In this document: positions 13,927 to 21,040 of the stretch, one piece after another
Layout: each line of letters opens with the position of its first letter
How positions within the stretch are numbered: position 1 is the stretch's first letter
Source: an uncultured Flavobacteriales bacterium
Lineage (GTDB): Bacteria > Bacteroidota > Bacteroidia > Flavobacteriales > Schleiferiaceae
NCBI GenBank assembly: GCA_913055685.1
Contig: CAJXKC010000004.1
Span: 148,988 to 212,987 of the forward strand
Length of the DNA stretch: 64,000 nt
Direction: 5' to 3'
Program-made: the position numbers and the translations under genes
The notes under the pieces: generated by a model
What the model was told of the DNA's origin: nothing
What the model saw: only the letters and a program-made list of their open reading frames with translations
Databases searched by the model: none

Positions 13927-14114
13927 CTTTCTTTTGCTTTATGGAATCAAGGTATTAAAAGATCTTCGAATTAATGGGATTTCACATTTGTGATAAACTA
14001 CTTCATTGGGCAGTAATTAACCTTTCTGCAAGGTCTACGGCTTCATTTTTCATGGTTTCGGGTATATATTGCCGCGTGAAGGGCAATCCTGGGCCCCGAT
14101 ATAGCAATTCTTGC

Positions 14115-14329
14115 CTATGGTCGGTTGCTTCCTTGACCCCAACACACCATTCCCTCGCTATGGTCGGTTGCTTCCTTGACCCCAACACACCATTCCCTCA
14201 CTATGGTCGGTTGCTTCCTGTGCTGTAACAGACCATTCCCATGCAATGGTCGGTCGCTTCCCATCCTAAGAGAGACCATTCCCTTGCCATGGTCGGTGGC
14301 TTCCCTGGCAATGATCGACTATAGCCTTA
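14115..14329 (+). repeat. Tandem array of five 43-bp units
   Basis: Units start at 14115, 14158, 14201, 14244, 14287; consensus C(T/C/A)ATGGTCGGTNGCTTCC-N13-ACCATTCCCNNG; units 1 and 2 differ at one base; unit 5 diverged in the 3' flank. Confidence 0.92.
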
Positions 14330-14740
14330 GCTAAGACGCGGACCTATTTTAATGCGCACTACCATCAATTTAGAGCAGACTACCATTAATTTAGGGCGAC
14401 GGCTTTATCTTTTGTAAGGTCGCTCGCTTCTTGCCCCTCGATCGCTTTATAAATTTTCTTGGTCGATTGCTTCTTGTGCTTAGAGAGGGCAAGTATTTTC
14501 TTCGACCGACCAATAGCAAGGAAAGAACAGGGCATTGCTTTGGTACCGAGAGACCATTAAATTTAAAGCACCGACCAGCATCAGGCGAAAGCCGTTCTAC
14601 TAAATTACAACATCGACCATAGGCGAAGAAGTGAACGACTATAGTCCTACAGTGGATCGACCATAGGCAGGGACAGTAACCACTTTAGTACTCAGCTTGC
14701 TAGACCAAGGACAGACTATATTCGGGTCTATCAAGGGGAA
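14330..14740. repeat. Degenerate and partly inverted continuation of the 43-bp family
   Basis: ggtcgctcgcttctt at 14418 and ggtcgattgcttctt at 14461 (43 apart); inverted cgaccgaccaatagcaag at 14503; gaccatag at 14615 and 14659; actaccatcaatttagagcag / actaccattaatttagggcga subrepeats. Confidence 0.65.
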
Positions 14741-14809
14741 AGCTGCTCAAGTTGAGGGCTTTTTGCGCTAAGAGTCTATGTTATACCTTTAAAACCAAAA
14801 TTAGCTCCT

Positions 14810-20165: not shown

Positions 20166-20276
20166 CGTTCAAATTTTAGGTTAGGAACAAAAAACTTCCA
20201 GTTAGAGAGATTAGAGAAAAAGCCTTGCTTAAACAAGAGCTTCGTCAATAATAGCTTTTATCCTGAAAGCGAATTA

Positions 20277-20455
20277 TTTATGTGCTCTTGGCAGGTCTTC
20301 TGGCTTGTCTCAAGGGTAGAGGCCTTCCCGTTTTTACACAGTGGCGTTAATCTCAACCTTTAACGAGACTTACAGCTTCAGGAAAAGCTCAGGATTTACA
20401 CCTGATTCCCTTTTAATCCCTTTTCGGTAGACACCGAATCGGAAACCATAAGCAA
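20277..20455 (-). ncRNA. Cobalamin riboswitch
   Basis: Minus strand shows GGGAATCAGGTGTAAATCCTGAGCTTTTCCTGAAGCTGTAAGT, GCCACTGTG, GGGAAGGCC, and AGCCAGAAGACCTGCC (B12-box region). Confidence 0.95.
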
Positions 20456-20475
20456 GACAAAAGTAGAGAAAAGAA

Positions 20476-20898: not shown

Positions 20899-20935
20899 GA
20901 TACTAGAATTAGGCTTCTAATATAGGTAGAATTTG

Positions 20936-21040
20936 GGATATGAGAGGTGGGATGTGAGATGTGAGATGTGGGAAGTGGGAAGTTTGATGAGCGACCTAAA
21001 TTTAGTCTCAAATCTCACGTCTTACGTCTCACGTCTTCTT
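20936..21040. repeat. Purine-rich short-period repeats with a partner pyrimidine-rich inverted tract
   Basis: gagatgtgagatgtgggaagtgggaag on + strand and ctcacgtcttacgtctcacgtcttctt ~50 bp downstream. Confidence 0.7.

What the first reader, a model, noticed from the sequence alone, without database searches (positions are those of the whole stretch)
14330..14740. Array continues as decayed copies and then flips orientation
GGTCGCTCGCTTCTT (14418) and GGTCGATTGCTTCTT (14461) are again 43 bp apart and match the unit 5' flank. From ~14500 the motif appears inverted: CGACCGACCAATAGCAAG at 14503, GACCATAG at 14615 and 14659 (44 apart). On the minus strand CTATGGTC-GATCCACTGTAG-GACTATAG forms an 8-bp stem with one G-U. 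A second motif, actaccatcaatttagagcag / actaccattaatttagggcga / gagaccattaaatttaaagca, is interspersed. The whole 14.1-14.7 kb block looks like a large, decayed inverted arrangement of one element family.
Basis: partly seen in the sequence, partly recalled or inferred. Interest (0 to 1): 0.68.

Follow-up and report, generated by a model that had tools for sequence, protein, structure and literature searches.

The report
Two-helical-turn intergenic repeat arrays
A gene-free stretch of this bacterium's chromosome is built from about thirty worn copies of a 21-22 letter DNA unit, some facing each way but all on the same evenly spaced grid (two turns of the double helix), and the same genome holds two more such stretches plus a fourth with an unrelated sequence on the same grid; what they do is not known.

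Summary
Window 14102-14744 divides into about 30 units of 21 or 22 bp. The left 200 bp is a young 43-bp tandem array (two units per period). The rest is old, diverged units (43-49% identity within a class), with the core site in both orientations on one fixed grid. The "flip" is therefore in register and not a large palindrome. Direct and inverted matches far exceed shuffled controls. The same genome carries two related islands (C2:703.4-704.1 kb and C5:72.9-73.6 kb). No other genome tested has it: 0 of 87 other genomes of the family, 0 of 297 others sampled from the order, none in the 84,980-species collection by exact pattern, none in phages or plasmids. A period scan found a fourth island (C2:123.3-124.0 kb), unrelated in sequence, whose 34 complete units are all 21 or 22 bp. 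RNA structure, coding and regulatory roles are disfavoured. Best reading: a species-specific bacterial satellite growing in two-helical-turn steps. Main rival: a helically phased array of protein-binding sites that works like F-plasmid sopC (also 43-bp repeats), but no partner protein or linked par genes were found. Simulation shows the grid alone does not prove selection.

The parts
14102..14744 (.). Island A: about 30 consecutive units of 21 or 22 bp (15 of 21, 14 of 22, 1 of 20)
   Evidence: Cyclic profile segmentation, score 112.6 against -102 to -118 for shuffles; period 21.2 power 6.3 against a shuffled maximum of 3.15
14115..14304 (.). Young homogeneous 43-bp tandem array (4.4 copies); each period holds one site in each orientation (CACCATTCCCTCGCTATGGTC + GGTTGCTTCCTTGACCCCAACA)
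   Evidence: TRF score 215; the repeat finder D1, spacing 43,43,43
14317..14359 (.). Diverged units between the 43-bp array and the AT-cored units (GACTATAGCCTTAGCTAAGAC, GCGGACCTATTTTAATGCGCAC)
   Evidence: Segmentation; same place in islands B and C in the alignment
14360..14400 (+). Two AT-cored units TACCATCAATTTAGAGCAGAC / TACCATTAATTTAGGGCGAC; the segment best shared in order with islands B and C
   Evidence: Alignment A1; unit 12 of A against unit 15 of B scores 17 on a scale where 21 is identity
14418..14475 (-). Reverse-orientation sites GGTCGCTCGCTTCTT and GGTCGATTGCTTCTT, 43 bp apart
   Evidence: segmentation
14503..14744 (+). Forward-orientation diverged units (GACCAATAGCAAGGAAAG, GACCATTAAATTTAAAGCACC, GACCATAGGCGAAGAAGTG ...)
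   Evidence: segmentation; profile matches at 14449-14548, 14552-14608 and 14626-14694

Best explanation
The block is one of three copies of a species-specific, satellite-like intergenic element. It arose by repeated tandem duplication of a 21-22 bp unit (two helical turns) in whole-unit steps, was copied or seeded at three chromosomal sites, and then diverged. The left edge still grows as a homogeneous 43-bp (two-unit) array, and the rest is older. Reverse-orientation units lie on the same grid because the unit core (...GGTC|GACC...) sits at a shared centre, so inverting a unit does not break the phase. It makes no protein and no specifically folded RNA, and is most likely kept passively in gene-free gaps; slippage or recombination in steps near two helical turns sets the period. 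SHOWN: the grid, both orientations, three related islands, absence from the relatives tested, local homogenisation, and a fourth island on the same grid with unrelated sequence. INFERRED: the duplication mechanism, the relative ages, and the lack of function.
For: Units are 20-23 bp in all three islands, nearly all 21 or 22. Autocorrelation peaks fall at 21/22, 43, 64/65, 86, 107/108 and 129. Island-specific 43-mers are homogeneous within A and within B. A unit profile finds only these three islands in 88 family genomes and in 298 genomes sampled from the order. DNA searches find nothing in 38 relatives, including 6 congeners. Flanks are unrelated and gene orientation differs: A lies between genes pointing away from it, B between convergent genes. 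Congeners carry other intergenic satellites of other periods (88-90, 117 and 133 bp), so such arrays are a habit of the genus. A simulation of neutral decay with indel/substitution ratios up to 0.1 keeps as much period power as observed.
Against: Conservation within the unit is uneven (21-mers p=3e-8, 22-mers p=1.4e-5; last base C 96% in 21-mers, core GACCA 61-75%), which uniform decay would not give, though fitting the grid inflates this. Two sequence-unrelated families in one genome share a 21.6-bp grid, which chance slippage does not readily explain. Order outside the 43-mers is only weakly shared between islands (permutation p 0.82, 0.04, 0.01), so common descent of whole islands is not established.
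Confidence: 0.5

Rival explanations
1. A functional array of protein-binding sites. A sequence-specific protein binds the bipartite core at the unit junctions on one face of the helix every two turns, about 30 sites per island, and nucleates a large nucleoprotein complex (centromere-like or nucleoid-organising). It works like F-plasmid sopC with its 43-bp repeats.
For: Spacing of 21.2-21.6 bp is two turns of negatively supercoiled DNA (about 11 bp, PMC4132750). The 43-bp period with internal inverted half-sites GACCAT-N9-ATGGTC resembles sopC (twelve 43-bp repeats with 16-bp inverted motifs, PMC6238139, PMC9178275). Uneven conservation in the unit. The grid is shared by the unrelated island D. 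Sites occur in both orientations in register (profile against its own reverse complement 0.48, null 0.20 sd 0.06).
Against: Only one ParB-family gene in the genome, at C2:350 kb, far from all islands. No par genes were recognised beside B or C. No parS-like palindrome near island A. The element is limited to one species. Neutral simulation keeps the grid too. No cognate protein identified.
Confidence: 0.33
2. A long structured non-coding RNA transcribed across the island.
For: Plus-strand folding is better than dinucleotide shuffles in all three islands (z -2.7, -3.3, -3.7).
Against: Shuffling unit order removes most of the advantage (plus-strand z +0.68, -1.18, -1.00; only B minus stands out at -2.66). 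RNAalifold covariation term is unfavourable, +7.3 kcal/mol. No Rfam match at the gathering score in the island.
Confidence: 0.07
3. A decayed mobile element (MITE-like) or one large inverted repeat.
For: Three dispersed copies; inverted matches between the two halves.
Against: Island starts and ends differ between copies and no shared terminal inverted repeat was seen in the alignment. Inverted matches are unit-level and in register, not one long pair of arms: 12-27 nt at 70-100% complementarity. No related element in congeners, phages or plasmids.
Confidence: 0.07

Closest known systems
F-plasmid sopC (parS of F): twelve 43-bp direct repeats with a 16-bp inverted repeat bound by SopB
   Same: 43-bp period; several tandem copies; inverted half-sites inside each period
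   Different: Chromosomal intergenic, three sites; most of the island is a diverged 21/22-bp grid; no linked sopAB-type genes recognised and only one ParB-family gene in the genome; sequence comparison with sopC was not made
Plasmid iteron arrays and ParR-type centromere repeats (about 20-22 or 10-11 bp; from general knowledge)
   Same: Unit length near one or two helical turns; head-to-tail sites on one face
   Different: About 30 strongly diverged units in both orientations; no Rep or ParR gene recognised nearby; no plasmid match (with island C)
Bacterial intergenic tandem repeats / satellite-like DNA (VNTR type)
   Same: Gene-free, species-specific, locally homogenised tandem arrays; congeners have their own
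   Different: Period held at two helical turns in two sequence-unrelated families of one genome; unit inversions kept in phase

Membership tests
Bacterial tandem-repeat (satellite-like) DNA | Head-to-tail repeats above chance | tested here: met
   TRF score 215; autocorrelation z up to 18
Bacterial tandem-repeat (satellite-like) DNA | Non-coding | tested here: met
   Only an 84-aa ORF (13974-14228) enters the block and the 43-bp period is not a multiple of 3
Bacterial tandem-repeat (satellite-like) DNA | Lineage-restricted with rapid turnover | tested here: met
   Absent from 6 congeners, 87 other family genomes and 297 other genomes sampled from the order
sopC / ParABS centromere | 43-bp tandem repeats with an internal inverted repeat | tested here: met
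   14115-14304, GACCAT-N9-ATGGTC
sopC / ParABS centromere | Linked parA/parB operon | tested here: not met
   The only ParB_N gene is at C2:350 kb, not beside any island; flanking genes searched are unrelated
sopC / ParABS centromere | Binding by a ParB/SopB protein | not testable with these tools
   Needs EMSA or ChIP
Structured ncRNA | Fold conserved with compensatory changes | tested here: not met
CRISPR | Identical repeats separated by unique spacers | tested here: not met
   The 43-bp unit is continuous, without variable spacers
MITE / insertion element | Terminal inverted repeats and target duplication | tested here: inconclusive
   No shared ends seen in the three-island alignment; no empty site available for comparison

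The most novel reading that the evidence does not exclude
The chromosome carries several scaffolds in which the spacing, two helical turns on one face of DNA, is the selected feature while the sequence turns over quickly: a bacterial counterpart of centromeric satellites, read by an unidentified DNA-binding protein or by DNA topology itself, with two unrelated sequence families (A/B/C and D) in one genome.
Probability: 0.18. Interest if true: 0.8.

Novelty: new variant of a known kind. Interest (0 to 1): 0.45.

Why it matters
Long, strongly diverged tandem arrays that stay on a two-helical-turn grid, in two unrelated sequences within one bacterial genome, would separate 'spacing matters' from 'sequence matters' for chromosomal DNA. 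If functional they are candidate nucleoprotein scaffolds; if neutral they show that bacterial slippage or recombination favours helical multiples. Either claim can be tested with a few deletions and a pull-down.

Tried and rejected
Hairpin or RNA reading: global folds, consensus fold, unit-order shuffle control, within-site dyad test, Rfam - rejected. Intrinsic curvature with a wedge model (parameters from memory): z 0.1, 2.1 and 2.1 for A, B and C, not convincing. Lattice rigidity as proof of selection: simulation shows period power does not discriminate indel rates up to 0.1 per substitution - dropped as an argument. Colinearity of whole islands: weak, p 0.82, 0.04, 0.01. Synteny in congeners: neighbours of murQ and of the glyoxalase gene are rearranged, so no empty site could be read. 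Common descent of D with A/B/C: profile similarity no better than permuted columns, p 0.90. Replication-strand bias: GC skew of flanks uninformative. Paper searches found no description of such arrays; only open-licence papers were searched.

Full report
OBSERVATION. A self-comparison with 60 dinucleotide shuffles shows direct and inverted matches well above chance within and between the two halves of the block. TRF reports a 43-bp array at 14115-14304 (4.4 copies) and a 21-bp echo at 14346-14392.

WHAT IT IS. Alignment-free periodicity shows one grid through the whole block: autocorrelation peaks at 21/22, 43, 65, 86 and 129 and a spectral peak at 21.2 bp, power 6.3 against a shuffled maximum of 3.15. 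A cyclic profile with free insertions and deletions cuts 14102-14744 into about 30 units of 21 or 22 bp, plus one of 20. Two classes recur: a 21-bp AT-cored unit (GACCAATaAATTTAtgcaAcC) and a 22-bp unit (GACCAtTaCCcagGAaagGAcC). Within a class, units are only 49% and 43% identical. The left 200 bp is a homogeneous 43-bp array in which the two units of each period carry the core in opposite orientations (ACACACCATTCCC and ATGGTCGGTTGCTTCC). The core straddles the unit boundary (GGTC|GACC), and the unit profile resembles its own reverse complement far more than permuted columns do (0.48 against 0.20, sd 0.06). Individual sites are not palindromes.

RELATED SEQUENCES. The same genome holds two more islands of this family: B at C2:703.4-704.1 kb and C at C5:72.9-73.6 kb. 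Both show the same grid (21.45 and 21.55 bp) and the same layout: 43-bp array first, then AT-cored and mixed units; in C the 43-bp array is itself diverged. Shared order outside the array is weak by unit permutation, apart from a short anchor around TACCATTAATTTAGAGCAGAC. A sequence profile of four-unit blocks recovers all three islands and nothing else in the window, flanks and congener loci searched, in 88 genomes of the family or in 298 genomes sampled from the order (strict filters). BLAST-type searches of 39 genomes including 6 congeners, the phage and plasmid collections and an exact pattern over 84,980 species found nothing outside the own genome. Records of the window's own species may be left out of the public collections.

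A FOURTH ISLAND. A period scan of 0.8 Mb of the own genome and 0.8 Mb of each of two congeners found one further clear non-coding 21.5-bp peak, in the own genome: C2:123.3-124.0 kb (island D, locus L075:3271-4030). Its peaks are at 10.8 and 21.65 bp, with lags 22, 43, 65, 87, 108, 130, 152, 173 and 195. It cuts into 34 complete units, all 21 or 22 bp (for example TAAAGCGATGCTAGGCTGCGGG, TACCCTGTTGGGCTCTGAGTA), with a four-unit higher-order period of 86-87. Its sequence is unrelated to A/B/C (profile similarity no better than permuted columns, p 0.90) and it is absent from the six congeners. The congener samples hold other intergenic satellites of 88-90, 117 and 133 bp.

HOW IT PROBABLY WORKS. 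Coding is excluded by the period and by the lack of ORFs. A cis-regulatory role is unlikely because A lies between genes that point away from it and B between convergent genes. The RNA reading fails the unit-order control. Two explanations remain. First, a satellite-like array growing by whole-unit duplication: supported by island-specific homogenised 43-mers, arbitrary contexts, restriction to one species, and a simulation in which neutral decay with indels keeps the grid visible. Second, a helically phased binding array: supported by the two-turn spacing in two unrelated families, uneven conservation in the unit, and the likeness to F-plasmid sopC, twelve 43-bp repeats with inverted motifs (PMC6238139, PMC9178275). 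The second lacks a partner: the only ParB-family gene lies at C2:350 kb. I give the first about 0.5 and the second about 0.33.

KNOWN OR NEW. It works somewhat like sopC but is not filed there, because the linked par operon was tested and not found. As tandem repeat DNA it is a known kind. The two-turn grid kept across strongly diverged units and across two unrelated sequences, with in-register inversions, makes it a variant for which the papers searched gave no description.

Noticed in passing
L075:3271-4030 (G000:C2:123.3-124.0 kb): Fourth island, unrelated sequence, 34 complete units all of 21 or 22 bp, peaks at 10.8 and 21.65 bp; flanked by a dispersed GAACGTAAAACGTTCC repeat and 67-nt inverted arms (94% complementary).
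   Followed up: partly
L006:4540-4900: Another intergenic repeat family (CTTCGTGGCCTTCGTGTGAGGC) directly left of island C; a reverse-complement-like stretch occurs in L014 near 2255-2300.
   Followed up: no
window 20934-20983: Short purine-rich 7/14/21-bp tandem array (TGGGATGTGAGAAG); similar TGAGACGTGAGA runs lie downstream of murQ in congener locus L033.
   Followed up: no
L101:12198-13304, L150:13789-14699, L160:17473-18300 (congener G003): Intergenic satellites of 88-90 bp sharing CGCGTTC/ACGCAGATGA motifs, several hundred bp to 1.1 kb long.
   Followed up: partly
L164:2157-3907 (congener G003): Looks like a CRISPR array: 36-bp repeat GTCAGAGCAACCTTCCAACTCAAATAGGATTACGAC, period about 71.
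   Followed up: no
L128:15152-15812 and L184:18378-18943 (congener G005): Non-coding tandem arrays of 117 and 133 bp, further satellite-like families in the genus.
   Followed up: no
window 20273-20465: Cobalamin riboswitch on the minus strand (Rfam RF00174, 98.7 bits).
   Followed up: no
G003:C1:1276136-1276542: The glyoxalase-family gene beside island A appears broken by stop codons in this congener.
   Followed up: no
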